The notes beneath the pieces were generated by a model. It was not told where the DNA came from. It ran no database searches and saw nothing but the letters and a program-made list of their open reading frames with translations. Positions 7,214-62,612 of a stretch of 64,000 bases of DNA are shown piece by piece (within the stretch, counting starts at the first letter, position 1; each line of letters opens with the position of its first letter). Both the position numbers and the translations under genes were made by a program. The stretch lies in NCBI GenBank assembly GCA_020205615.1, contig JAINUW010000387.1, forward strand, positions 1 through 64,000, given 5' to 3'. This stretch comes from Panax quinquefolius. Lineage: Eukaryota > Streptophyta > Magnoliopsida > Apiales > Araliaceae.

Positions 7214-9013
7214 TGTTGGGTAAAATCTATATACGCATAACATGCAAGTATACGTGGTCAACAAGTAATAAAGTGATGAGTAGAGTGTCGTTCCCACAGA
7301 GATAATTTAGCAAGAAACTTAACTTCATAATTATCAATTTCCTATTAATCCTAATTTTATTAAACTATCCAATTCAATGATTAAAAATTATAGAAACTAA
7401 ATTAAAAACAAATAAACTACCACAAACCAATTACCAATATCAAAATCAGGAAATTTCAAACAGTTAATGAAGAATTAGACTTATGATTTCACCCTAAGTT
7501 TCACTCTAATTTTAACACTTTTATTCCAATTCAATCCACTATCCTAGTTTATTAATCAAGAACACGAACGTAGTATTAACCACCTCTCGATGCACTAATA
7601 TCGTATTAACGTCAATCCATAATTAAGATAGAAATCCGTTAAATACCTTAACCAACTAAACCACTATATCTCTATGTGAATTACAATTGAAGAAGGTTGA
7701 AGAATAAGTTCTCTATCCGATTACATGCGGTGTCAAGCATATCTCTACCTTAACACTCATCAAGTTTAAGCTATTAACAAAATCTTGAACACATGCTATA
7801 TCAACTAGGTCTAGATTTGCATATCCTCTCTCGATTCCATACAAATCCACAAAGAATTGTTGATCAAACAATTCATAGATTCAAGCTCAAATCAATATAG
7901 ATAAACTGGAAATAGCTTATTAAATTGGAAATCAAAGTTTACAAAACCATCAATTCACTTAAGGATCCATCACAAGCCTAAAAAGTGAATTAGTTCATAA
8001 TAAACAAAATAAAGACTGAATAAATCATGGAAGTCATTCTTTCAATTACAAATAATAGTCTAAGACGAAGAATATTGAAATACACCCTTCATATAGCCTA
8101 GAATCGTAATCGTCTCGAAAATCTCCTTGAAATACTCCTCCAACCCTTGCTACGAAAAAACTGAGATTAATCTTTGTAATTTGCCTTGTGTGTCTTTAAT
8201 CTCATTGTTTGTTATTAATTATATACTTCCACATGTATTCTGATTACAATTCCATGCCAAAAAGAATCCCAAGTCATCACCATCACTAAAACTCCATGTT
8301 TGTAGCATTAGAAACCAACTAGGAGACTTCAAATTTGAGTACCCAAGCCCCAGCTTGCTATTTCCCTTTGTAATAGCAAGCCCCGGCTTGCTATCGAGCT
8401 GTTAAAATGCCCAGGACCCAAGCCCCGGCTTGCTATTAAGGTACAAAAGGGCAAGCCCCAGCTTGATATGCTTCTAAAAATTTGTTGCACTGTCCTTTAC
8501 TAAAACTGCCATAACTTTTAAACCGAGAGGAGTTACGAGGCCCACCACCTATCAAATCGAAGCTATCGACGAGCTCTACATCTTTCATTCTTTGAGTTTC
8601 CAGAAATAACGAATGGATGAAGGTCGAAATTGCATTGAAATTAGCTGCTGCTGTGTAATGACAAACAAAACAACTCTTAGCTTTGTCTTTATTGATTAAA
8701 AGGCCATACTCTCGCATCCGAACTTCCGATTGGAATGATACAAGATGTTTCGAAAATCCAAGAAAGAGTTCTACAACATAGTCCAAGTTCCACGCCACGA
8801 ACATGAAATACACATAAAATGAACATGAAGGCCCGAAGGATATCCGGAATTTCTTTTCCTTGCAATTTCATACCAATAGTCGCTCAATCTGCTTCCAAAC
8901 ATATAATCTACAAAATGAAAACAAAATGTATGAAAAGTAACTAAGAAAGACGAGATTAAGAAAATAATTCAAGTAATAGATGCCAAATAAGTAGGTATAA
9001 AACCTACTTATCA
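7214..9013 (-). repeat. E3 3' LTR (left on plus strand)
   Basis: 1800 bp, TGTTGGGTAAAATC to CTACTTATCA on the plus strand, with a near-identical partner at 15071-16869. It holds four GC-rich palindromic units (8344-8469) and a minus-strand TATA box near 8217-8226. Confidence 0.92.
8344..8469 (-). promoter_or_regulatory. E3 U3 palindrome cluster, 3' LTR
   Basis: Four copies of a unit centred on the inverted repeat GCAAGCC-cc-GGCTTGC (8344-8359, 8375-8393, 8418-8436, 8451-8469). It lies about 120 bp upstream, in sense, of the TATA box at 8217-8226. The same cluster lies in the other LTR at 16199-16325, and six further copies sit inside the element at 11988-12190. Confidence 0.55.
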
Positions 9014-11987: not shown

Positions 11988-12190
11988 CTAAGTCCCGGCT
12001 TGATATTTACTCTTGAAGGGGCAAGCCCCGGCTTGCTAGCAATCTGTTAAGGTAGTATGAGGGCAAGCCCCGACTTGCTATTTAATCTTGGAGGGGCAAG
12101 CCCCGGCTTTCTGTCCATCTGCTAATGCACCATGAGGGGAAAGCCCCAGCTTGCTATTTGTCCATTGAGAGGCAAGCCCCATCTTGCTAG
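11988..12190 (-). repeat. E3 internal palindrome cluster (six units)
   Basis: Six units of the motif found in U3 of this element's LTRs, based on GCAAGCC-cc-GGCTTGC. They lie near 11990, 12019-12038, 12061-12080, 12093-12110, 12136-12155 and 12170-12189, spaced 30-45 bp. No LTR sequence surrounds them, so the motif was copied or amplified independently upstream of the PTPD gene. Confidence 0.7.
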
Positions 12191-15070: not shown

Positions 15071-16869
15071 TGTTAGGTAAAATCTTTATACGCACAACAC
15101 GCAAGTATACGTGGTCAACAAGTAATAAAATGATGAGTAGACTGTCGTTCCCATAGAGACAATTTAGCAAGAAACTTAACTTCACAATTATCAATTTCCT
15201 ATTAATCCTAATTTTATTAAACTATCCAATTTAATGATTAAAAATTATAGAAACTAAATTAAAAACAAATAAACTACCACAAACCAATTACCAATATCAA
15301 AATCTGGAAATTTCAAACAGTTAATGGAGAATTAGACTTATGATTTCACCCTATGTTTCACTCTAATTTTAAAACTTTTATTCCAATTCAATTCACTATC
15401 CCAGTTTATTAATCAAGAACACGAACGTAGTGTTAACCACCTCTCGATGCACAAATACCGTATTAACGTCAATCCACAATTAAGATAGAAATCCGTTAAA
15501 CACCTTAACCAACTAACCCACTATATCTCTATGTTAATTACAATTGAAGAAGGTTGAAGAATAAGTTCTCTATCCGATTACATGTGGTGTCAAGCATATC
15601 TTTACCTTAACACTCATCAAGTTTAAGCTATTAACAAAATCATGAACATATGTTATATCAAATAGGTCTAGATTTGCATATCCTCTCTCGATTCCATACA
15701 AATCCACAAAGAATTGTTGATCAGGCAATTCATAGATTCAAGCTTAAATCAATATAGATAAACTGGATATAGCTTATTAAATTGGAAATTAAAGTTTACA
15801 AAACCATCGATTCACTTAAGGATCCATCACCAACCTAAAAAGTGAATTAGTTCATAATAAACAAAATAAAGACTGAATAAATCATGGAAGTCATTCTTTC
15901 AATTACAAATAATAGTCTAAGACGAAGAATATTGAAATACACCCTTCACGTAGCCTAGAATCGCAATCGTCTCGAAAATCTCCTTGAAATACTCCACCAA
16001 CGCTTGCTAAGAAAAACTGATATTCATCTTCGTAATTTTCCTTGTGTGTCTTTAATCTCATTGTTTGTTGTTAATTATATACTTCCACATGTATTCTGAT
16101 TTCAATTTCATGCCAAAACGAATCCCAAGTCATCACCATCACTAAAACTCCATGTTTGTAGCATTAGAAACCAACTAGGAGACTTCAAATTCGAGTACCC
16201 AAGCCTCAACTTGCTATTTCCCTTTGTAATGGCAAGCCCCGGCTTGCTATCAAGCTGCTAAAATGCCCAGGACCCAAGCCCCGGCTTGCTATTAAGGCAT
16301 AAAAGGGCAAGCCCCAGCTTGCTATGCTTCTGAAAATCTGTTGCATTGTCCTCTACTAAAACTGTCATAACTTTTAAACCGGGAGGTTTTACGAGGCCCG
16401 CCACCTATCAAATCGAAGCTATTGACGAGCTCTACAACTTTCATTTTTGAGCTTCCAGAAATAACGAACGGATGAAGGTCGAAATTGCATCAGAAGTAGC
16501 TGCTGCTGTGTAATGACAAACAAAACAACTCTTAGCTTTGTCTTTGTTGATTAAAAGGCCATACTCTCGTATCCAAACTTCCGATTGGAATGATACAAGA
16601 CGTTCTGGAAAAGCCAAGAAAGAGTTCTACAACATAGTCCAAGTTCCACGCCATGAACATGAAATACACATAAAATGAACATGAAGGCCCGAACGATATC
16701 CAGAATTGCTTTTCCTTGCAATTTCATACCAATAGTCGCTCAATCCGCTTCCAACCATATAATCTACAAAAAGAAAACAAAATGTATGAAAACTAACTAA
16801 GAAACACGAGATTAAGCAAATAATTCAAGTAATAGATGCCGGATAAGCAGGTATAAAACCTACTTATCA
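15071..16869 (-). repeat. E3 5' LTR (right on plus strand)
   Basis: 1799 bp, TGTTAGGTAAAATC to CTACTTATCA on the plus strand, partner of 7214-9013. It contains the U3 palindrome cluster at 16199-16325. The two LTRs differ by scattered substitutions. Confidence 0.92.
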
Positions 16870-24235: not shown

Positions 24236-24248
24236 TGGTATCAAAGCT
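24236..24248 (+). other. E5 primer binding site (tRNA-iMet type)
   Basis: TGGTATCAAAGCT, three bases after the LTR end, is one base from the usual TGGTATCAGAGC of plant LTR elements. Confidence 0.8.
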
Positions 24249-24470
24249 TTATGTTATGAACCTTAGGTGGGGGAAACCTTAGGAAGTAACCTTTAAGGAG
24301 ATCAAAAACATAGTGGTGAGAACTTTGATCTAGTTTTAAGGTATGGATTAAGGAATTCATTAAAGAGAAATAATAAAAGACTTTATATGTTTATGTGTTG
24401 ATAACTTATGTGCTCGCGAGTATCGAAGAGTGTCATGTAGTAAATAAAACTTAAGGTATTTTGTTGTCAG

Positions 24471-25242
24471 GATGTTTAATGCTGAAGGATTCAGTTAAGC
24501 TAGGGAGAAGATACCTTAGGTGCCTAGAGATGAGGAGTCCCGAGATGTCTATGTTGTTCAAGAGCAGTTAATTCAGAGGGAGCCTTCTCTGTTGGTCACT
24601 ATTGAGGGACATGGGAATGAGCCTGTGTCTGATCTAGAGGAGGAGGACTCTGGGAAGATAGAGGTGGAAGATGAGGAAGAGGATCCTGTGGAGGTGGAAG
24701 ATGAGCAGTTGATACAGCTAGGATGTATGATGAATTATATGATTGTAATATAGAATTGCAGTCTAAGGTTGAGGAGATGAATGAGCTGGCTTACATGCGT
24801 CAGGCTATTATAGAGTAGAAGGGTGTGGAGATTCAGGATCTAGACATATATCTTGGGAATACAGAATGGAACCTAGTTCACACAGAGGGTCATCAAGAAT
24901 AGCTTTTGGCTGAGAATGAAAAGATGAAGACTGGAGTTGAGAAGCTAAAAGATGATTTGAAGGAGGAGTCAGCTAAGCGTGCGAGATCAAAAGACGTTTG
25001 GATGAAGGCTACTCAGCGTACAAATCGTGCTGAAGACAAGGTTCAGACAACAAAGGTCAAGATGAATTAAATGGGTTATGCTTTTCATTCTGCGATTGAT
25101 AGGTCCCAAGACCAAGTCTTTTATTACCTAACTCAGTTTGAAGACTTGACATGGTATATGATGGATCGTGGAACAATGTTTCGCATCATGGAAGAAGAGC
25201 ATGGAGAAGCTTCTCGACGTCTTTATATACCAAAATAGGAAG
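24471..25242 (+). pseudogene. E5 extra ORF upstream of gag (acidic, coiled-coil)
   Basis: A decayed frame of about 255 codons lies between the primer site and gag. The first half is strongly acidic (VSDLEEEDSGKIEVEDEEED, EVEDEQ). After a frame change near 24715 the second half is Lys/Glu-rich and probably coiled-coil (LLAENEKMKTGVEKLKDDLK, EESAKRARSKDVW), ending with SRRLYIPK and a stop at 25242. Four or five stops interrupt it. I recognise no domain. The smooth composition and length of the two halves show that it was once translated. Standard Tekay elements have gag first, so this is either a lineage-specific ORF or a captured gene. Confidence 0.55.
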
Positions 25243-25491
25243 AGTAATAAGTTATGTGATTAAATATGTGTTACACAAATTGTAAATCCCTTATTTTGAG
25301 ATAAAAAATGGGGTAAGATGACCATATATCCTGAAACTTTTTAAGTTCAGGAAAATTGATGTAGATAGTAGAGATGCTATCCTTTGATATATTTTAGGAA
25401 ATATGAATTGATAAAATATCGAAATTACCTAAATGTTATATGTTAAGCTTTAATCATAGAATGTTTAAGTTAAACGTTAATATTTAAGAAA

Positions 25492-26480
25492 TTGAGTGGT
25501 GATCTAATAAGCGTATATCTTAAACAAAAAATGCCTCCTACAAGAAGACAACCATGCCAACAACCACCCCTTGAAGGGTCTACTAACAACAACAATAATG
25601 AGTCCAATGCTAGCCCAGTTCAGCAATTGGTGACCTTGCTAATAGGAGCACTTGCGAATCAGCAACAAGCTCAAGTCATGACTTTTAAGGACTTCAAAGC
25701 GGTTGGACCGCTAGAGTTTCAAGGGTCTATGAATCCAGTTGAAGCCCAAACCTGGATCATGGAAATGGAGGAGGTTTTCGACGTTGTCAGGGTCATAGAG
25801 GATCAGAAAACCACTTTAGCAACGTTTATGTTGAAATCTGAAGCTAGTTATTGGTGGCAGGAAAATAAGGTTCATGGCGTATAAGGAATGATAACATGAG
25901 ATAGGTTTAAAGAAATATTTTTTAAGATGTACTTTCCGTCTAGTTCCCGGAACCAGATGTAATTTCAATTCTTGAAATTAAAGCAAGGAACCTTGCATGT
26001 GCTAGAGTATGCAGTGATGTTTAATAAGTTTGTAATGTTTGCTCCGTACCAAGTTAATATAGATGAGTATAAGGCGAAAAGGTTTGGAAAGGGGTTGAAG
26101 CAATAAAGGAAGTAATAACCAAAAAAGGAAGTTGAATGAAAATCCAAATGTAGGAGGACAACAAGGAAGTAAGAAAAAGAAGAAGTTTGAAGCTTGTACT
26201 ACTTGTGGGAAGAACCATACTGGTATGTGTCTGAAGGATAAGCGAGTATATTTTAATTATGTCCAGGAGGGTCACATTGCGCCAAATTATTTTAGCCCCA
26301 AGAAGGGAGCTTGTTTCACTTGCGGGTCGAAGGATCATATGGCTCGTGATTGCCCTAGAAAGACAGCAGGAGGTGCAAGTGGAGGTAAGGGAAGCAACAG
26401 TGGTGCTACGTTAATTATCATTGGGCTAGTGTCATCAAACCGACCTACTGGCAAAACTTTCAATATGACCGTGCAAGATA
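25492..26480 (+). pseudogene. E5 gag (chromovirus type)
   Basis: The capsid start at 25492-25884 has the family wording FKAVGPLEFQGSMNPVEAQT, ATFMLKSEASYWW. A stop follows and the frame is damaged to about 26116. The C-terminal part (26132 on) has a basic stretch (GSKKKKKFEA) and three zinc knuckles. The first, CTTCGKNHTGMC, is intact. The second has lost its cysteines (YFNYVQEGHIAPNYF). The third, CFTCGSKDHMARDC, is intact. Part of the capsid is missing. It runs directly into protease. Confidence 0.85.
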
Positions 26481-27039
26481 TTGTGCAGTCAAAGGATGTG
26501 GTTTCAGATATCATTCTAATCAATGATATTAATGCTTATGTGTTATTTGAATCGGGTGCTACTTGTTCATTTATATCCAATGGTTTTGTGAAGGTCATAG
26601 ATTTGCTTTAGGAAGAATTAGATATTCCTGTAAGCATATAGATTGAAAATAGGGAAGTGATTCCTGTTAGGTTTATATACAAGAATTATAGGGTGGATAT
26701 AAAGGGCCACGAGATGATGGTAGATTTGATACCGATTAAACTTGGGGAATTTGATGTTATAATGGGAATAGATTGGTTATTTAATTATGGGGCTGTAATT
26801 GATTACCAAAAGAGATGTTTTAACCTTATGACTCCGTCAAAGGTGGTGTTTTATGGCAGGAAATTGCCTAGACAAGCAAGTTATCCGACGGTGATGCGGG
26901 CCAAGAAATTACTGAAATAAGTATATGAAGGATACTTAGCCTATAAAATTGATACTCAGAAGAAGATTGCGAAATTGGAAGAGATACCAGTCATTAGAGA
27001 TTTTGCAGATGTATTTCCAGATGATTTGCATGGACTTCC
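26481..27039 (+). pseudogene. E5 protease and start of RT
   Basis: AYVLFESGATCSFIS holds the retropepsin site with Glu in place of the catalytic Asp (usual FDSGA). GEFDVIMGIDWLFNYGAVID follows, a family hallmark. In-frame stops lie near 26609 and 26639 and after KKLLK (26918). The last recognised text, IRDFADVFPDDLHGLP, is the linker before RT. It stops at 27039, where foreign LTR sequence begins. Confidence 0.85.
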
Positions 27040-28004
27040 TGTTGACGTCGGGATTTTTATTTGTCCCTTTTTGTTCTTGAATTTTAGTGTTATCATTTTT
27101 GGTGAGATTTGTTTGAAAAAACAAGTTTGAAAAGTTCTGACATGTATATGTCGATGATTTTACTGTAAGAGTCGCCAATTGGTTATTTTTAAATGGTTGC
27201 ACCAACTCAATCGAGAAAAGGTTTGCACAAAGACCCATGTATTTGACACAGTTTGACTGGTTTATAAAACCAAAATTCATTAGGGTCTGGGGGCTTGATT
27301 AAGAAGAGGGAAGGTGTTAGGCACCCCCCCCCCTGACTTCCGTGATAACACGGTTACTGCCACTTTTTAAATAAACTTTTATCTATAAATGTGTGTGTGT
27401 GTGTGTTAGGTTTATGTACAGTTGTTTGGAAGTGGTGCTATGCCTCGTTTACACCTATATACAAAGGGTTTGACTTTTGTTTAAAGTTGAATTATAACAA
27501 GATATAGTAATGATATTTTGTAAAATAAGTTTTTTAAACCCTTGTGCTTAATATTAATTGAGGCATTTGGTACTTTCATTTTATTAAATGTTTAGCTTGA
27601 TTGCTTTTATTTTTGAGATGCGAGGCATCTTCGAGAAAATAAGATATATAACAATGTCGAACTCCTTGTGGGCATAAGAGCCATATAAGGAAATTTAGAC
27701 ACCATAGATAATTTACATGCTGGCTGTAGCTATAAAATGTCCATCACGAGAACTGAATCTATATCCAGGAGTTGAATTTATGAGCACTTAATTCCTAGGC
27801 TCACATGTGAAAGAAATATTAACAAAAGCTAGAAAAAGAACTAGATTTGAACAAATCTAAACCATTCCAGCTTAAACGGTTCCAGTTTAGTCACTATGAA
27901 ACAGTTAAAGTGAGAATTGGCTAGATTTAGGGAAATCTTAGCCCGCAAGCTGAAAATTAAATATTTACATATGAAAGCGAAAAAGAGTATAGTTATATAA
28001 AAGC

Positions 28005-28043
<39 letters not shown>

Positions 28044-28387
28044 ATGATCAACTGCCATGAAGTAAAATCTAGGCAGGACTTTGAAATGTAAATATATATA
28101 TATATATATATCTGTTGCATTTACAACTTTTATTTATATATATATATAAGTATATATATATATGAGCAATAAAAAGCCACGGATCAACGATCCGGGCATA
28201 CCCACATAACGCGACTCTCAACATTAGTAGATATAAGTATATAAAAGTATGGAAAAGCTTAAAAATCTAAAAAATCTTACAATGGATTTCCAAGAACATT
28301 TCAGATAGCTTTTCATGACTGAAAACTTGGTTTCTACCTGTAAAACTTCATGACTCTCTTTTTTTCAAATGAGCTCCCAAGAGCTCA

Positions 28388-28395
28388 TATATAAA
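28388..28395 (+). promoter_or_regulatory. E6 LTR TATA box
   Basis: TATATAAA, followed about 12 bp later by a GC-rich stretch that can fold (GCCACGGGT-ct-ACCTGTGGC with one G-T pair, then CCCGGG-ttgc-CCCGGG). Transcription would start near 28420, placing the hairpin arrays in the RNA leader. Confidence 0.55.
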
Positions 28396-28795
28396 GACCT
28401 GATAGCCACGGGTCTACCTGTGGCTACCCGGGTTGCCCCGGGCCATGTGGGTCCCGTTGTCTAAAAGTACGTGCACTTTGGCTACGCGTTATTTGCATAA
28501 AACTTTATAACTTTCAATCTGGGCATCCGATAAAGGCGTGTTAGACCTTTTCGAGAAGCTGTTATCGAGAGCTACACAATGACATGGGATTAGAGGTTGT
28601 ACAAATCCGAAAAGATGGGTCCATGACTAGATCTTCAAGTCTTTAAATTATATTCGGTGTGCTGTCTTTTTGTAGTAATCACTCGAGATTTGAGCTATGA
28701 TTCTTGTGGGACACCTTGTATGAAGTGTTGACTGAAATGATGTTGGGACAATGTAAATGTAGTATCGAGGTGGCAAAATGACAATTTTGTCCCTC

Positions 28796-29170
28796 ACCGG
28801 GGTTATCTCCGACTTTGCACAGATGTAGTAGTTGTTGTTAAGGGTTATCTCAGAGATTGGGCTGTTGTGAATGCTGAATGTCCTCAGGGTTAATCTCTAA
28901 GATGTGTTTGACCTCCAGGGGTTATCTCTGGGGTACACACTGAGTATCTCGGGGTTATCTCCGAGGTTGAAACTAACTTTTTTGGGGTTATCACTGGAAC
29001 TGGAACTGCTTCCCTCAGGGTTGTCTCCGAGGTCTGGAACTGGATCTCCCAGGGTTATCTCTAGGATTTATACTGAGTATCTCGGGGTTATCTTCGAGAA
29101 TGAGAATTGAGGATCCAGGGGTTGTCTTCGCGATTAAAATTGAGTTGACTTCCAAGGTTATCTTTGGAAG
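28796..29170 (+). repeat. E6 leader: tandem stem-loops with loop GGTTATCT
   Basis: Eleven units at 31-42 bp spacing share the 8-base core GGTTATCT or a close variant. Arms on either side pair and differ from unit to unit: CTCGG/CCGAG (28948-28965), CTCCAG/CTGGGG (28913-28933), CCTCaG/CcGAGG (29013-29032), TCCcAG/CTaGGA (29047-29066), TCTCGG/TCGAGA (29080-29099) and CTTCCAA/TTGGAAG (29149-29170). Units near 28843, 28986 and 29120 are weak. Lower-case letters mark mismatches. Confidence 0.8.
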
Positions 29171-29561
29171 ACAATTTTTCCCTCTTACAGGGTTAGCAAA
29201 AGGAATGCAAAATTTCAAGTGTTTACAGATGCCCCTCTTTATCATATTCATGCAATGTAACAACATGAATAGGATAAATATTGCTAGACACTTGAAATAT
29301 GACAAGATAATCATGATACAAATGTAACACAACATGATGCAAATGTATATTGAGTGTATGGAATGGAGGTTTCTCCATGATTGAGACTATATGATGTTGA
29401 CATTTAAGGTTATCACCAAAGTCCTTAACCCTCATCGCCAACTTTCCACCGCAGATGTTCTTCTCATATGCGAGAGACTTTTGGGGAATTATGCTTTAAT
29501 TGCTGATGATCTGTATAAAAGATTCCATCATTAGTCCTGCCCGATGAGGATGGTTTCCCAT

Positions 29562-29958
29562 GATTTGCATCACTAGGTCTTTCTGATGCTTTGTTGGAGT
29601 TACTGCCAACGGCTAGTTATGTCAGAGCTGCCTGACCCTCATTGAAATTTCCTTCAACAGCTGATATCATCGGACCACCTTCGATGCTTCGCTGGATTTA
29701 ATTGCCAATGAATAATGTTGTTAGGGTTGTATGACCCTTGTTTAAATGTTCTTCAACAGCTAATACCATCAGACCACTTCTGATGCTTCATTGGAGTTAA
29801 TTGCCAACAGCTAATGATGTCAGGACTGCCTGACCCTCGTTGAAATGTCCTTCAACGGCTGATATCACCTGACCACCTCTGAAGCTTCACTACATTTAAT
29901 TGCCAATGACTAATGATGTCAAGACTATATGACCTTCATTGAAATGTTCTTCAATGGC
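29562..29958 (+). repeat. E6 leader: 99-bp tandem repeat built of stem-loops
   Basis: Four units of about 99 bp (starts near 29562, 29661, 29760, 29859). Each holds up to four inverted repeats. Examples are CATCGGA/TTCGATG (29668-29686), CATCAGA/TCTGATG (29767-29785), GTCAGG/CCTGAC (29819-29834), CGTTGAA/TTCAACG (29838-29857) and CATTGAA/TTCAATG (29937-29956). Arms change together between units. Confidence 0.8.
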
Positions 29959-31071
29959 GGAGGATGTAAGAAATCTCCGCTGGGGAATAGATTTCTGATG
30001 AGATGCATGGTTTTGATTGTAATTACAACCCGATTAATGGCATTGGACCTTCACAAGATATTGCCCTAGTTAGCTTTCAAGAGCTATGATAATTGGCTTC
30101 GTAGACCCTGTGTCTGGGCAAATACCAATGATTGATATGTAGACCTGCAGTTTGGTGTTTGAGAATCAGGATTTTAGGCTTTTCCGCTTAATTACGTAGC
30201 ATCTGTTTTCCTGATTTGAATTTTTAGCTTGTGGGACCTCCTTTGAAACTCAAATTTGATCAAGTTGGAAGGGGTGGGGACCACCCAACACAGACATAGG
30301 TGGACCTGCGACTGGCACGAGTACGCATACAGCCACCAATGGGTTTATATCTCACTTTTTTCCCTTTGTTAAGTCATTTTCACTTGAAGCCGCACAGAGA
30401 ATCCAAGATTTCTTCTTCAGATCTATTGAGTTCGGGTTGTTTTCTGTAAAATCCATCACCATACAAGTGTTCTACCCTATCCTGGTAACGTATACAAGTT
30501 TTCTTTTCCAGTTTTGACCGTTGGAAAGCGAGATATCACATGAAATGCCTCAAACACATAGTAGTGAATATGCATGCTCATATGACTTTATAAAAATTAT
30601 TTAACACAGCAAATATTAGTATTTAAACATGCTGAACGTATTGATTTGAAAACAAATGAATTTTGAAATAGTAAATTTGGCACCTTTTTCTGCTATTTTT
30701 TTATCCTATTTGAGGACAAATGAGCAAAAGGTTGTGAAGAAAAGTAATCCTGGTAATTAGCCTATCCTTGTGGATTATGACTTTGATATTTTTCATGCAT
30801 ATAGGATGTTTATGACTGTGACTTGGTGTGCCACTAAATGGACACCTAGTCATGCTTACGCGCATGTGGATAGTCTAGTTTACAAAAAAGACTCTGGCGA
30901 AATTTTTTTCTTGAGTCTAGGCATTGAATGAACATGCATTTTTAACTTTACTGTAGTCGTATGTTAAAGTAACACATGTATGCATATAGACATAAAATGC
31001 ATTTAATGAGCTCTAGGTTAGAATTTACCACACCCTTTCTGAGATGATTTTGGAGACTTTTGTCCAGATAT

Positions 31072-31150
31072 ATGGATCCAGACTAGCCGAGTAGCTCCCG
31101 TAGGACCTCTGCAGGTGTGAGGAGGAGAGCTTCTGATATGCCTCGGCCTC
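31072..31150 (+). pseudogene. E6 plant-mobile-domain ORF, N-terminal piece
   Basis: Starts MDPD, one stop, then PSSSRRTSAGVRRRAS and MPRPRP, an Arg/Ser/Pro-rich basic start. The E7 insertion at 31150 cuts it. The frame continues in phase at 60628 once the duplicated gcctc is counted once. See the entry at 60628-61143 for the domain. Confidence 0.6.
31146..31150. repeat. E7 target site duplication, left copy (gcctc)
   Basis: gcctc recurs at 60623-60627 directly after the right LTR of E7, and the interrupted E6 ORF is in phase across it. Confidence 0.92.
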
Positions 31151-31679
31151 TGTAATAACCCGATATTTTCTATGTAATTAAATCAGAAATTTTGCATATA
31201 AATTTTTTTTTATTAAAATAAAATTGGGGAATATGTATAAGTCAAAGCATATGTATTTATGTGATAAATAAAAATATATTTTTTACATGAATAATTACAA
31301 ATAATTTTATTTTAAAATTATTGATCATTATAAACCATATTCTTATAATAATTAATTTTATAAGTACAAATGTTTTTATTATTTAATTTTCATGAAAATA
31401 TGATTATAATATTATTTAAATAATATATGGAATGATTATATAACTATTATAATAATTATTTTATTATATGAATTTATTTGATTAATTAAGTTAATTATTA
31501 TAACTTAATTAATAATGGTTTGTATTTGGAAGATAAATTGGATATGGAATCCAAACCATAATTTTGGATTTTGAACAATGAATGAGAATAATAATATAAT
31601 ATTATTTATATTTCAGTACTATAAATATGTACCGTATGTATAGACCGATAATTGTTAGTCAATTACGGTGTATCATGAC

Positions 31680-34357: not shown

Positions 34358-34524
34358 CTGCTTTCAACTAGCAGGATTTCCACTAAGGAAGGGCAGCACC
34401 TTGAATCACTAAGATTCCTTCAAGGCCAACAGCCTCGGGACATCAGTTCACTACGAACTCTTCAAGGCCAGCAGCCTTGGAACTCCTCTAGTTACCTAGG
34501 AACTCTTCAAGCCCAGCAGGCTTG
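34358..34524 (-). repeat. E8 leader stem-loop array
   Basis: On the plus strand, in order: CTGCT/AGCAG (34358-34374), TTCC-actaa-GGAA (34378-34390), GAATC-actaa-GATTC (34403-34417), CAAGGC-caaca-GCCTcG (34421-34437), GTTC-actac-GAAC (34446-34458), CAAGGC-cagca-GCCTTG (34463-34479), CAAGCC-cagca-GGCTTG (34508-34524). It lies downstream of the LTR TATA box in sense, so in the RNA leader. Confidence 0.82.
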
Positions 34525-35504
34525 GAACTTCATTTAGTCCCTCCGGACAAGGACCCCTCAGGCCCTGACTTCTTGTTGTTGTTGTTGTTGATGTCATTAG
34601 CTTCAAAACATCTTTTGTACTTAGCAGCTTGGTGTGGTCCTCTTTGCTTGCTTTCTGCTTTGAGTCTGGACCACATCTTCCTTGGTGCAACTGATCTTTA
34701 TTCTTTTCTGCTCATCTTTGTCTTGTATTAGCAGTGCACCATCACCATCTAGATTTGCTAAGTCTCTGTGCTTTTGGTAGACTTCTTCCGACACTTAGCA
34801 ATCCCTGAACCCTTATTTAATGTTTTGTAGACATGGTTCTGCACTTATTCAGTTTTAGCTTTTGGTTCATGGTGATTCGTAGAGTGGCTCCCTTGATCTT
34901 CTTTGTACTCAGCCACTCTTCTGAATGCTATCTTCTTGGCCTTCTCGGCTCTCAGCTTGGCTGCCATCTTTAGTGCCATTTTCATCTTTGTTGAGTAAAG
35001 CTTTGATCTGTTTAAGTTCTTCTTCAAAGCTGCTTCACTTCCACTTTGGTAGTCTCACTATCACTGAGACTTGTTCTGTTGATCTTTGGTGGAACTCGTA
35101 GAGTCAACAATAGCATTCACCAACTCAACGATTCTGCAACATAGCAATCATCAGCAACTCTTGATCTTTGAAGCTCTGTCGATTTATACTGCTTCTCAAT
35201 CTTCCCGTTGGAAGATAGCCATTGAAAGTTATTCAAATTGCTTCACAAATCTCGAGTTATTTGGTGCAGACTGCCGATGTGACATGTTATCTTTTTCTGA
35301 CTTTCTGACACTGCAGTCTACTATTTCACCTACACCGTCAGATATGTTACTTTAATGTCTTAGGCAGGTCGAAGACTTTATTTCCCCCTTCGGATTTCAT
35401 GATCAGAGGTTGTCCTTGCATCGATGCTCTCAATAAGCTTTTGTCTGAATGCCAACCTTCAGATTAAACTGTTGCCAATGCTTCAATCGTTAGTGTTTCA
35501 AACT

Positions 35505-53148: not shown

Positions 53149-54757
53149 AGCCAGCAGCCTTGGGACTTCAGTTCACTAAGAACTCTTCAAGGCCAGCAGC
53201 TTTGGAACTCCTCTAGTTCCTCAGGAACTCTTCAAGCCCAGTAGGATTAGAACTTCATTTAGTCCTTCCGGACAAAGACCCCTCAGACCCTGGCTTGTTG
53301 TTGTTGTTGTTGGTGGTGGTGCTGAGCTGCTAAGATGTCATTAGGCTTCAAAACATATTTTGTACTTAGCAGCTTGGTGTGGTCGTCTTTGCTTTCTGCT
53401 TCGAGTTTGGACCACATCTTCTTTGGTGCAGCTGATCTTTATTCTTTTCTGCTCATCTTCATCTTGTATCAGCAGTGCACCATCACCATCTGGATTTGCT
53501 AAGTCTATGTGCTTTTGGTAGACTTCGTCTAGCACTTAGCAATCCCTGAACCATTCTTGAATGTTTTGCATACATGGTTTTGCCCTTGTTTAGTTTTAGC
53601 TTTTGGTTCACGGTGATTCGTAGAGTGGCTCTCTTGATCTTCTTTGTACTCAGCCACTCTTCTGAATGCTATCTTCTTGGCCTTCTCGGCTCTCAGCTTG
53701 GCTGCCATCTTTAGTGGCATTCTCATCTTTGTTGAGTGAAGCTTTGATCTGTTTAAGTTCTTCTTCAAAGCTGCTTCACTTCCACCTTGGTAGTCTCACT
53801 GTCATTGAGACTTGTTCTGTTGATCTTTGGTTGAACTCGTATAGTCAACAATAACATTCACCAACTCAACGATTCTGCAACATAGCAATCATCAGCAACT
53901 CTTGATCTTTGAAGCTTTGTCGATTTATACTGCTTCTAAATCTTCCCGTTGCAAGATAGCCATTAAAAGCTATTCAAATTGCTTCACAGATCTCGAGTTA
54001 TTTGGTGCAGACTGCCGATGTGACATATCATCTTTTTTTGACTTTCTAACATTGTAGTCTACTGTTTCACCTACCCCGTCAGATATGTTACTTTGATGTC
54101 TTGGGCAGGTCGACGACTTTATTTCCCCCTTCTGATTTATTGATCAGAAGTTGTCCCTGCGTCGATGCTATCAATAAGCTTTTGTCTGAATGCCAACCTT
54201 CAGATTGAACCGTTGCCAATGGTTCAATCCTTAGTTGTTCGAACACTACGATTCTGATGCACTTCTTCTTGGACCTGATCGTAGTGTCTTATTGACATGT
54301 AGAGTCAACACTACGATCTCGAGGAGTGTTCACTTAATCTTCTGTGTAGAACACCTCTTCCTCTTTTTTGTCTGATTGCTTCAATACTTCATTTTGCCTC
54401 ATTGCTCTCGATTAATCGATGGATTGACTCCTTGTTTCTGGCCCATTCTGAATAACAAGTCACTTCAGATTTGTGGCGTGTCCAGTTCGCTTTCTCATTA
54501 TGATCTCCCGTTCACTTATCATCAATGGACTGACCCAATGCTTAATCACTTTTAGCCTTGTTATTCAGAGGCTGACCAGTATCTTTGTGTATACTCCATC
54601 AGTTTCTTCTTTGTTTGGCAAACACTACGATCCTGGTCACTTCCAATATCATTGTTATCATTCCACTTGTCAGCTACTGCACATGCTGATTTTCCTTGGT
54701 CAGCTACTAAAGTCTTCTTGTGATTATCTTGTGGAAGTCTTTATCTTGAATTGCTTT
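53149..54757 (-). repeat. E8 5' LTR fragment
   Basis: Matches 34425 to about 36020 of the 3' LTR, including the stem-loops (53160-53250; here GTTC-actaa-GAAC), the C/T-rich coding-like stretch and the TATA box. The end that would join the leader and the outer 990 bp are both missing. It ends at about 54757 next to E7 gag. Confidence 0.85.
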
Positions 54758-60627: not shown

Positions 60628-61143
60628 GCCCAGCCCGATAGCATCATTGGTTGACCGAGTCACTGATTCGTCGTATTCGGGTTGAGATACCAAATGACGA
60701 GGATGAGGAGGAAGATGTACTGGCCGCGGATCCTGCTCCTCCTATTTCTATTCCCCGCAGGGAGCTTCTAGCTATAAATGTGACGATTCCAGAACTTCGG
60801 GATGATTTGAATCGTCACCCCTCGATCTATCTATATGCGAACAAGGAAAATGCCGTGTTAATCTTCCCATTTGTAAGGGGCAAGGGTTCTAATATTGCTT
60901 TGCATTGTGATGTAGGTTCCCAACTTTATACAACCTTGAGGGAACTGGTTCAACATACACTCCCTATACCAGACTCTTCACCCGTAGTACCGAGAGATTA
61001 TGCATGCTTGGGGTTTCAAGGCGTTCTTTTCCATCATCCCTCGTCATTGTCCTTAGGGTTACCTCAGGGCGTTGTCTGAGTGCTGGTTTTACTAGACTAA
61101 TTCTTTTCATTTGCTGGATTATGAGGTGATGATGACACTGATG
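60628..61143 (+). pseudogene. E6 ORF with plant mobile domain (PMD), main piece
   Basis: Continues the frame begun at 31072, one stop before 60651. LTESLIRRIRVEIPNDEDEE leads to an acidic, then Pro-rich stretch (AADPAPPISIPRRELL). The middle (ITIPELRDDLNRHPSIY-like, GSNIALHCDVGSQLYTTL) is not recognised. After a frameshift near 61030 the text reads RALSECWFY, TNSFHLLDYEVMMTL, which matches the start of the plant mobile domain (usual form: ALVERW...TFHL..GEMTITL). E11 cuts it at 61143. PMDs occur in the MAIN/MAIL proteins and in plant transposons. The call rests on a short match. Confidence 0.5.
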
Positions 61144-62612
61144 TGTTAGTTCCCGGAGGCACGACAAATATCTAGAAGGGGGGGTTTAATAGATAATTAA
61201 AACTTTTTCTTTTAACTTATTTAGGATGATGATAATCAGTGCACAATGGAATGAGTATTTAATATGCCTTCTGTTAGATACCTTGAGTTAATGAGAGTGA
61301 GGTAGTTATGACAGTTATAGCATAATAGCAGTTATAGCAGTTATAATGAACACAATAATTTTAAGTGGTTCTGAGCAATTAAAGCTCCTAATCCACTCTT
61401 CTACTCCTTGAGTAGGAAATCCACTAAGGATGTCTGTTACACTTCTTGAATCTCATAGATTCCTTCTGAACCGTGCAGCTTCAGGTACTTCTTAGTTCAC
61501 TCTTGAACTCTTCAAGTCCAGCTGACTTGGTTTCTCACAGTTCACTTAGAACTCTTCAAGTCCTGCAGACTTGGTTTTCTTACTTCAGTTGATTGAAATG
61601 TTGTTTAGATCATGATTGATGCTACTCAGTTTCTATTAAGCACTAGTTCGAAAGAACTGAGTAGCTGAGTAAGCTTTCCCTTTTTATCAGATCGTAGAGT
61701 GTTCTTGTGTGTTTTTTGTCAATGCTTGTCTCTTCTTCTCATCTGTCTTTGATCTATATATATGTGATCTTGAAATCTATCCGTTGAAGTCATCTGATGA
61801 GCCATTAAATGCTTTTGACATTTCTGAGATTTGATGGAGACGTTTTTGCACATCTTCTGAATTGCACTCTGGCCCACTGACAAAGCAGACTGCTTTCTCA
61901 CCTAACACCTCAAAAGGTGTTTCCTCTGCCTAATGGTCCTTTTCATAGCTTCTTGGATACGTTTCTTTGGATCAATACTAAGGATATCTTATGTACCGTT
62001 GGGACTGGTGAGAACTTCAACGTTCAAAACCCATTCCATATTTGTTGGAGTCTATCTTCAAATGAACAACAGGGCTTGATGTTTTTGACACGAGGCAGAT
62101 GACACTCTACTATCCATGTCGTAGTTTCTTGCCATATTGATGTTTGCTCTTAAGAGAACACTACGATTTCTCGCAAGAATTTGCACACTATGATCTTTTC
62201 ACACGACGATCAACACTTGCTCGTCTTACAGACTCTGCATTTCCTAAAGCACACTACGATCTCTGAGTTAGCTTCGCCAAATGTCTGGACCACTCTACGA
62301 TTTCCTGAAGAGGCCCTTCAAGGCAGATACACTACGATCATTTTAGAACTACGATCCTACCTTAGATTCTGCATTCTGTTGATCAGCTGGATAGACTACG
62401 ATTCTCTTCAAAGCCTATCTATTTCTTTCTAGCCATAGATCAACCTAATATATTTGATCTCTTTATCTATACAAGTGAACATTAAAGGCTAAGATCAACC
62501 TAACAATTTTGATCTATCACTAAGTCCTTGTATATATATTCCTCGAAGGACTTTACACATAATCATGAGCATTTACTTTAAACATCAAATCATAATATGC
62601 ATTCTTCCAACA
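61144..62612 (-). repeat. E11 3' LTR
   Basis: 1469 bp, TGTTAGTTCCCGG to CTTCCAACA. It holds the stem-loop array (61401-61573), a minus-strand TATA box (about 61755-61768) and CTACGAT repeats (62160-62405). Confidence 0.85.
61401..61573 (-). repeat. E11 leader stem-loop array
   Basis: On the plus strand: CTACT/AGTAG (61401-61415), ATCC-actaa-GGAT (61419-61431), GAATC-tcata-GATTC (61448-61462), CTGAA/TTCAG (61466-61484), GTTC/GAAC (61495-61508), CAAGTC-cagct-GACTTG (61513-61529), GTTC-actta-GAAC (61540-61552), CAAGTC-ctgca-GACTTG (61557-61573). Order and spacing match the E8 array. Confidence 0.82.

What the first reader, a model, noticed from the sequence alone, without database searches (positions are those of the whole stretch)
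28796..29170. Tandem hairpins with constant octaloop GGTTATCT in the E6 leader
Eleven units at 31-42 bp spacing keep the loop GGTTATCT while the flanking arms differ but still pair (CTCGG/CCGAG, CTCCAG/CTGGGG, CTTCCAA/TTGGAAG, TCTCGG/TCGAGA). An ordinary decayed tandem repeat would keep the arms similar and lose pairing. The array lies 0.4-0.75 kb after the LTR TATA box, so it is probably transcribed. A constant loop on variable stems suggests a repeated binding site for a protein or RNA, or template-switch repair.
Basis: partly seen in the sequence, partly recalled or inferred. Interest (0 to 1): 0.78.

Follow-up and report, generated by a model that had tools for sequence, protein, structure and literature searches.

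The report
Constant-loop hairpin array in retrotransposon LTR
The long terminal repeat of an old, very abundant jumping gene, probably of a plant, carries eleven short hairpins in a row that share one loop sequence while their stems differ yet still pair, a pattern that points to a repeated structural signal whose reader is not yet known.

Summary
Eleven ~33-bp units (28795-29169) share the core GGTTATCT; their arms pair better with their own partner than with other units' arms (38 of 55 Watson-Crick pairs, swapped 29.2, P 0.0015). In 30 of 30 single copies own arms beat the swapped mean; in 29 of 30 P is below 0.05. Two copies with target duplications place the array inside the LTR (27040-29227), after a TATA-like box and 58 bp before the LTR end, so probably in R/U5 of a transcript. 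Over 30 copies the sense strand folds better than the antisense, unlike two control stretches, and G-U exceeds A-C. Best reading: RNA hairpins presenting one loop, kept while the element was active; the loop's reader, such as Gag, is inference. A DNA-level function or foldback copying is not excluded. It resembles Sirevirus repeated motifs but fails two of their features.

The parts
27040..29227 (+). LTR that holds the array (TGTTGACGTC ... GTTTACA), inserted into the gag-pol region of another Ty3-type element
   Evidence: In the 11 other loci that were fetched, likeness to the window begins at 27038-27042. Two copies that span both ends have target duplications: AAAGT/AAAGT (L056/L057) and CAACG/TAACG (L062/L063). 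Of 30 array copies 22 stop at 29215-29232 and 8, the window's own among them, continue.
28388..28396 (+). TATA-like box TATATAAAG, the last of many TATA-like sequences of the LTR; another is at 28238-28247. Start of transcription about 30 bp further is inferred
   Evidence: Pattern listing; no transcript data
28795..28814 (+). unit 1, core GGTTATCT at 28801 with 6-nt arms
   Evidence: exact core in 28 of 30 copies
28837..28856 (+). unit 2, core at 28843
   Evidence: exact core in 25 of 30 copies
28882..28902 (+). unit 3, core at 28888 with one inserted A in this copy
   Evidence: exact core in 20 of 30 copies
28914..28933 (+). unit 4, core at 28920
   Evidence: exact core in 20 of 30 copies
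28947..28966 (+). unit 5, core at 28953; pair 4 is T-A in 13 copies and C-G in 11, with 3 T-G and 1 C-A
   Evidence: exact core in only 6 of 30 copies
28980..28999 (+). unit 6, core at 28986, G-U among the commonest forms of three pairs
   Evidence: exact core in 23 of 30 copies
29013..29032 (+). unit 7, core at 29019
   Evidence: exact core in 18 of 30 copies
29047..29066 (+). unit 8, core at 29053; units 4-5 and 8-9 lie in a duplicated 61-bp block (82%)
   Evidence: exact core in 13 of 30 copies
29080..29099 (+). unit 9, core at 29086
   Evidence: exact core in 14 of 30 copies
29114..29133 (+). unit 10, core at 29120
   Evidence: exact core in only 3 of 30 copies
29150..29169 (+). unit 11, core at 29156, perfect 6-bp arms in this copy
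   Evidence: exact core in 18 of 30 copies
29228..31150 (+). 5' part of the internal region of the same element (99-bp repeats at 29581-29954), then cut by a nested LTR element at 31151-60622 flanked by GCCTC

Best explanation
The array is a run of about eleven short hairpins in the 3' part (R/U5) of the LTR of a high-copy LTR retrotransposon, probably of a plant. The loop-side sequence GGUUAUCU is fixed or nearly so while most stem letters are free as long as they pair. Most likely the hairpins form in the element's genomic RNA, in the leader just upstream of the LTR end, and a protein that reads the loop (Gag or a host RNA-binding factor) uses the many copies for a high-avidity step such as packaging, dimer formation or assembly. 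Shown: near-fixed core, arms that differ between units and pair in 30 copies, position inside the LTR after a TATA-like box. Supported but not shown: sense RNA as the molecule that folds.
For: Commonest letters of the arms in 30 copies: 57 of 66 Watson-Crick and 63 of 66 with G-U, against 43.6 (sd 3.0) and 55.5 (sd 1.6) for swapped arms; P 2e-5 and 1e-5. Own arms above the swapped mean in 30 of 30 copies, P below 0.05 in 29 of 30. A two-state compensated polymorphism at unit 5 pair 4, reached by 0 of 2000 shuffles. At commonest-letter level 7 of 8 core positions are shared by 11 of 11 units and the eighth by 9. Transitions among copies at CHH sites: core 2.9%, arms 4.8%, linkers 11.4%; transversions are lower in core and arms than in linkers in each context that they share. 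Sense strand folds better against shuffles than antisense: mean z -2.31 against -1.72, 23 of 30 copies, paired p 0.0014; two control stretches of the same LTR show no such bias (7 of 22 and 4 of 12 usable copies). G-U cells 170 against A-C 114, although in the linkers C-to-T (10.7%) is rarer than G-to-A (13.1%). The array ends 58 bp before the LTR end.
Against: No transcript, no probing, no binding data. In the window copy the pairing signal is at least as strong on the antisense strand (z -3.4 against -2.9), G-U and A-C are 9 to 6, and the whole array folds little better than shuffles (z -0.83 sense, -1.76 antisense), with three hairpins, one of them partial, in the longer folds. Over 30 copies a mean of 5.1 of 11 hairpins appear in the minimum-energy fold. 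One control stretch of the LTR has z -1.73 (12 copies), not far from the array's -2.3 to -2.5. The arms are not better kept than linkers at CG (16.4 against 15.6%), CHG (15.2 against 13.1%) and A/T sites (8.6 against 5.0%). The exact core is present in 188 of 330 unit cells, in only 6 and 3 of 30 copies for units 28953 and 29120; core position 5 varies (A to G 19%). Units descend from one another (6 distinct 5-nt left arms among 11; duplicated block), so swap P values overstate independence. Dealing the 3' letters anew among copies gives 1424.7 (sd 9.2) Watson-Crick cells against 1446, and the highest of 2000 shuffles is 1463. The GGTTATCT array is not among the 22 listed windows richest in perfect dyads. 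The 30 copies are the fetched part of 40 scored out of 4305 first-look candidates, all but the window's own at 81-83% identity.
Confidence: 0.5

Rival explanations
1. A DNA-level array of dyad boxes, like the repeated motifs of Sirevirus LTRs. A host factor binds the fixed core (its complement AGATAACC contains AGATAA, a WGATAR-type GATA site) or the symmetric flanks next to it, and the array regulates transcription or chromatin. The arms are symmetric because the DNA dyad or a cruciform matters.
For: At commonest-letter level the closing bases -1 and +1 are shared by 11 of 11 units and -3 and +3 by 10 and 11, so part of the 'arm' belongs to the fixed sequence. TTATCT occurs at 7 of the 11 cores; plant GATA factors bind WGATAR (PMC10693065, passages). 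Sirevirus elements carry 8 to 32 palindromic boxes, in the LTR and, where there is an ENV gene, upstream of it (PMC2829016, section 9). Pairing in the window copy does not favour the sense strand.
Against: A reader of the duplex core has no need for arms that differ between units yet pair. G-U excess and the sense-strand folding bias over 30 copies are not expected. The array lies after the LTR's TATA-like sequences.
Confidence: 0.25
2. Foldback copying: reverse transcriptase, or DNA polymerase, switches template inside short inverted repeats and copies one arm into the other, so stems stay paired without selection for a structure. The core is constant for another reason.
For: Template switching can create and maintain hairpin stems (PMC8794818, passages). 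Abnormal strand transfers are invoked for tandem repeats in plant retrotransposons (PMC7004042, passage). Other dyad arrays in the window with different loops (ACTAA, CAGCA) also have arms that differ and pair.
Against: In five LTR pairs of the window, 59 one-sided changes and one two-sided, non-pairing change in 372 dyad pairs, against copying in host DNA; about 1.6 two-sided changes were expected by chance, so power is low. No inverted core is seen in the array: GGTTATCT matches there are on the + strand only and AGATAA is absent. The near-fixed core needs a second cause. The GCAAGCC array does not covary.
Confidence: 0.17
3. An ordinary palindromic tandem repeat that decayed, with chance pairing and shared descent of units giving the signal.
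For: Units 4-5 and 8-9 are a duplicated block; the count of two-sided pairs is not significant within the window copy; perfect dyads are not in excess there.
Against: Most family copies pair better than the window copy: its 38 of 55 compares with 35 to 48 in the others, and 25 of 29 exceed 38. The GCAAGCC array shows what decay without covariation looks like. The core is shared by 11 of 11 units at 7 of 8 positions at commonest-letter level.
Confidence: 0.08

Closest known systems
Repeated motifs (RM boxes) of Sirevirus retrotransposons, Bousios et al. 2010 (PMC2829016; passages and section 9)
   Same: Clusters of at least 8 short dyads in plant LTR elements, of unproven function
   Different: There all but one of the 13 motifs have a fixed CGG-CCG signature, copies are commonly over 85% identical and the LTR boxes lie upstream of the TATA box. 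Here the centre is fixed, the arms vary and covary, and the array lies after the TATA-like box near the LTR 3' end.
Drosophila gypsy insulator, twelve repeats bound by Su(Hw) in the 5' untranslated region (PMC2493044, passages)
   Same: About a dozen closely spaced copies of one site in the leader of an LTR element
   Different: Sites for a zinc-finger DNA-binding protein; no paired flanking arms are described in the passages seen; animal element
Hairpin loops that start Ty1 RNA dimerisation and packaging (PMC5454406, abstract and outline)
   Same: Hairpins near the 5' end of LTR-retrotransposon RNA whose loops act in packaging
   Different: Two hairpins with complementary loops, not an array of one loop; GGUUAUCU is not self-complementary
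Tandem repeats of Tat/Ogre/Retand elements (PMC7004042, and PMC11963269; passages)
   Same: Family-specific tandem repeats in non-coding parts of plant LTR elements
   Different: Those lie in the 3' UTR or between pol and the 3' LTR; this array is inside the LTR and is made of hairpins

Membership tests
Sirevirus repeated motifs | Clustered palindromic boxes in the LTR | tested here: met
   Eleven dyads at 28795-29169 inside the LTR 27040-29227
Sirevirus repeated motifs | CGG-CCG signature as the constant part | tested here: not met
   In the window copy CGG before and CCG after the core occur together in 2 of 11 units (28801, 28953; sequences); the constant part is the centre
Sirevirus repeated motifs | LTR boxes lie upstream of the TATA box | tested here: not met
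   The TATA-like sequences of the LTR, the last at 28388, precede the array; the next, at 29514, is outside the LTR. The true start of transcription is unknown
Sirevirus repeated motifs | Ty1/copia Sirevirus pol phylogeny | not tested
   No pol of this element was identified in the window
RNA hairpin array (structured RNA element) | Compensatory variation of stem pairs | tested here: met
   Between units. Among copies of one unit: strong at unit 5 pair 4 only, modest overall. The count of two-sided pairs within the window copy is not significant
RNA hairpin array (structured RNA element) | G-U pairs tolerated on the sense strand more than A-C | tested here: inconclusive
   170 to 114 over 30 copies, but 9 to 6 in the window copy; a mutational strand bias is not excluded
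RNA hairpin array (structured RNA element) | Match to a known Rfam family | tested here: not met
   Three matches in 27000-31200, all far below the gathering score and with E 0.093 or worse
GATA/WGATAR binding-site array | AGATAA (TTATCT on the + strand) in each unit | tested here: inconclusive
   TTATCT at 7 of 11 cores; binding not testable
Tat/Ogre/Retand 3' tandem repeats | Repeats between pol and the 3' LTR | tested here: not met
   Array is within the LTR
Template-switch maintained stems in host DNA | New compensated pairs after insertion | tested here: inconclusive
   None among 60 changed dyad pairs of five LTR pairs; about 1.6 two-sided changes expected by chance

The most novel reading that the evidence does not exclude
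Plant LTR retrotransposons of several lineages carry, in their LTRs, a common kind of RNA signal: tandem arrays of mini-hairpins in which one loop is repeated on freely changing stems, read many times over by Gag or a host factor during packaging or assembly. The GGUUAUCU array and the ACTAA and CAGCA arrays at 34.4 and 61.4 kb would be cases from at least two element families.
Probability: 0.25. Interest if true: 0.8.

Novelty: new variant of a known kind. Interest (0 to 1): 0.6.

Why it matters
How plant LTR retrotransposon RNAs are recognised for packaging is, to my knowledge (recalled, not searched for as such), largely unknown. An array with eleven copies of one loop, found in all 30 examined copies of a family with thousands of first-look candidates, gives a concrete and testable candidate and a computational signature (fixed loop, covarying stems, swap test) that can be scanned for in other plant genomes. 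Even if the DNA reading is right, it adds a new type to the repeated dyad boxes known from Sireviruses.

Tried and rejected
Array descriptor in viral contigs: 13 loci; the matches looked by eye like short tandem repeats without relation to this array, L012 alone showing paired arms, the same in each unit. Two narrower patterns gave nothing. Rfam: nothing above threshold. Further units elsewhere in the window by covariance model: none convincing; the 11 units score E 0.041 or better and the next hit is at E 0.48. tRNA primer site: scanned with tRNA ends recalled from memory; none at the LTR end, the nearest match in 28400-31140 being two mismatches of 14 at 29815 in the 99-bp repeats. The downstream 99-bp repeats: hairpins Y (8 of 24 permutations reach the own value) and Z (2 of 6) do not covary significantly. 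The ACTAA and CAGCA comparators reach P 0.017 and 0.033 with five units each, but I chose the units after seeing the dyads, so this is weak. Their family-level test could not be run because the genome search stopped answering. A protein search with the ORF at 60642-61076 gave one 97-aa relative without a name. Pfam scans of 18 open frames of the window found no domain in those assigned to this element. Literature on such arrays: the listings of searches showed no title or abstract start describing a constant-loop, covarying-stem array in plant LTRs; only those listings and the passages named elsewhere were seen.

Limits of the statistics: units are related by duplication; the swap test treats them as exchangeable; the 30 copies are a best-match sample; per-copy P values share one ancestry; in the control folds 22 and 12 of 30 copies could be used.

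Full report
What was checked. The window holds eleven units with the core GGTTATCT or a one-change form of it between 28795 and 29169. Seven are exact, three have one substitution, one an inserted A. Core starts are 32-45 bp apart, mostly 33-34. The run has no gap in which a unit without the core could have been overlooked, so core constancy inside the run is not produced by choosing units by the core. In the window copy the core columns agree with the majority in 97% of cells (the inserted A left out), the 6-nt arms in 65%, the outer positions in 51%.

Do the arms pair more than they should? I dealt the right arms anew among the units. Five-base arms: 38 of 55 Watson-Crick pairs, swapped 29.2 (sd 2.7), P 0.0015; arm lengths 4, 6, 7 and 8 give P 0.022, 0.0023, 0.0056 and 0.021; with G-U counted, lengths 4 to 7 give 0.034, 0.0014, 0.0019 and 0.009, and length 8 gives 0.19. 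Dropping any one unit leaves P at or below 0.017 for five-base arms, and dropping one of each pair of near-duplicate units leaves 0.0007 to 0.017. A slid register gives 10-22 instead of 38. The tool's own count agrees on cells paired (3 of 500 shuffles) and covariation score (5 of 500), but not on the number of pairs changed on both sides (76 of 500). Perfect dyads of 6 bp or more are not in excess in the array, and the array is not among the 22 listed stretches of the window richest in perfect dyads. In RNA the first two and last two core bases also pair, so the predicted loop is UUAU, not eight bases.

A built-in control. Another element of the window carries 14 copies of a GCAAGCC..GGCTTGC dyad at 33 and 42-43 bp steps. 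Its arms are alike and decayed: own arms 60 of 70, swapped 60.4 (P 1.0); over seven bases 79 of 98, swapped 79.3 (P 0.76). The GGTTATCT array is different.

The family. After many unanswered requests the window's genome (3.57 Gb, 821 contigs) was searched with the array: 4305 first-look candidates, 40 scored, 30 fetched including the window's own. The copies are old and star-like: each has a mean identity to the others of 0.79 to 0.85 and none has a closer partner than 0.89. Counting pair types per arm pair over the 30 copies, the commonest letters pair in 57 of 66 positions, in 6 more they are G-U, in 1 A-C and in 2 neither. Swapped arms give 43.6 (sd 3.0), P 2e-5; with G-U 63 against 55.5, P 1e-5. 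There are ten distinct 6-nt arm pairs among the eleven units, but only six different 5-nt left arms. One of the six G-U entries, unit 5 pair 4, comes from two balanced paired states: T-A in 13 copies, C-G in 11, T-G in 3, C-A in 1, G-G in 1; no shuffle of 2000 reached its number of paired cells. Taken singly, 30 of 30 copies have own arms above the swapped mean and 29 of 30 have P below 0.05; L023 has 0.073 and L016 0.0405. So the outcome that would have refuted the finding did not occur. Against this, dealing letters among copies pair by pair gives only a modest overall excess (1446 against 1424.7, sd 9.2, shuffled maximum 1463), as expected if most variation among dead copies arose after insertion. 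The exact core is found in 188 of 330 unit cells, from 28 of 30 copies (unit 28801) down to 6 (28953) and 3 (29120); at commonest-letter level one core position, the A, is shared by 9 of 11 units and the other seven by 11.

Where it lies. The query 27040-27460 gave 8258 first-look candidates. In the 11 other loci fetched, likeness to the window begins at 27038-27042; the flanks before it differ, except that five share a GAGTCGCCACC-like stretch. Of five copies followed with 10-kb stretches, two end at the base matching 29227 and have target duplications AAAGT/AAAGT and CAACG/TAACG (the second with one mismatch). Of the 30 array copies 22 stop at 29215-29232 and 8, the window's own among them, run on into the internal region. 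The array is therefore inside the LTR, about 0.41-0.78 kb after the TATA-like sequence at 28388 and ending 58 bp before the LTR end, which in a transcript would be R/U5. The window copy sits in the coding region of an older Ty3-type element (protease and zinc knuckle hits in 26099-26917) and is itself split by a nested LTR element (31151-60622, duplication GCCTC).

RNA or DNA? In the window copy the signal does not favour the sense strand (G-U 9, A-C 6) and the whole array is little better folded than shuffles. Over 30 copies the sense strand is better folded than the antisense relative to shuffles (-2.31 against -1.72, 23 of 30, paired p 0.0014; -2.53 against -1.87), whereas two other stretches of the LTR lean the other way without significance (28400-28780, 22 usable copies, -0.83 against -1.14; 27500-27880, 12 usable copies, -1.73 against -2.11). 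G-U cells outnumber A-C cells 170 to 114 in pairs whose commonest letters are Watson-Crick, although linkers show fewer C-to-T than G-to-A changes. A mean of 5.1 of 11 hairpins is present in the minimum-energy fold, range 2 to 9, with 3 in the window copy. CHH sites change less in the core (2.9%) and arms (4.8%) than in linkers (11.4%), and transversions are rarer in core and arms; but at CG, CHG and A/T sites the arms change as much as the linkers or more (16.4 against 15.6%, 15.2 against 13.1%, 8.6 against 5.0%). These results lean to RNA but do not prove it.

Could copying alone make the stems? Template switching can create and keep hairpin stems (PMC8794818, passages). If it ran in host DNA, pairs of LTRs that were identical at insertion should show compensated pairs. 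In five LTR pairs with 372 dyad pairs, 59 changed on one side and one on both, not pairing (about 1.6 two-sided expected by chance). The test is weak but gives no support. Copying by reverse transcriptase during the active life is untested.

Is it wider than one family? The top-ranked dyad-dense stretch of the window against shuffles is 61376-61625 (8 dyads, 1.5 expected). There and at 34380-34560 the loop ACTAA or a variant sits on four kinds of arms, and the loop CAGCA or a variant on arms whose second pair is G-C, C-G or T-A; the exact permutation P values are 0.017 and 0.033 with five units each. These units were picked after seeing them. The 99-bp repeats at 29581-29954 give no significant covariation.

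What it is most like. The repeated motifs of Sireviruses (PMC2829016, section 9) are the nearest described thing that I found, but their constant part is the CGG-CCG arms and those of the LTR lie before the TATA box; both were tested and not met. The gypsy insulator (PMC2493044) shows that a dozen copies of one site in a retrotransposon leader can be a protein platform; Ty1 (PMC5454406) shows that hairpin loops near the 5' end can serve packaging. Which of these this array works like is open. I put 0.5 on an RNA hairpin array read through its loop, 0.25 on a DNA-level dyad array, 0.17 on foldback copying and 0.08 on plain decay.

The host was not identified; that it is a plant is my inference from the kinds of elements and the genome size, and rests on no call.

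Noticed in passing
window 8343-8466, 11988-12187, 16199-16322: Fourteen GCAAGCC..GGCTTGC dyads in another element's LTRs and interior at alternating 33 and 42-43 bp steps, close to the 33 and 42-45 bp steps of the GGTTATCT array although the sequences are unrelated.
   Followed up: partly
window 61360-61600, 34380-34560, 53150-53290: Dense arrays of short hairpins with repeated loops (ACTAA, CAGCA and variants) on different paired arms in related repeats of a further element; the first is the top-ranked dyad-dense stretch of the window.
   Followed up: partly
window 29212-29298: Two nested inverted repeats (14 and 15 nt arms, 93%) span the 3' end of the LTR and the first 70 bases of the internal region, and no TGG-type tRNA primer site was found at the LTR end; possibly a structure used for priming.
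   Followed up: no
L046, L047, L050, L053, L054 at the LTR start: In 5 of 12 loci, the window's own included in the 12, the LTR follows a GAGTCGCCACC-like stretch, which suggests a preferred target or repeated nesting in one repeat family.
   Followed up: no
window 31138-31150 and 60628-61076: The nested element (31151-60622) split a small ORF beginning MPRPRPAR; its second part has one 97-aa unnamed relative (P0001, 56% identity over 59% of the query) and no Pfam match.
   Followed up: partly
window 29581-29954; L069: 99-bp tandem repeats with internal dyads in the internal region; the number of units seems higher in L069.
   Followed up: partly
window 24236-27039: Initiator-Met-type primer site (one mismatch to a recalled 12-base pattern) followed by gag-protease remains of a Ty3-type element that the array's element interrupts.
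   Followed up: no
L012:107-198: A viral contig carries a 21-bp tandem repeat with TCTAGA-GGTTA-TCTAGA dyads; the same 8-mer, no other likeness seen.
   Followed up: no
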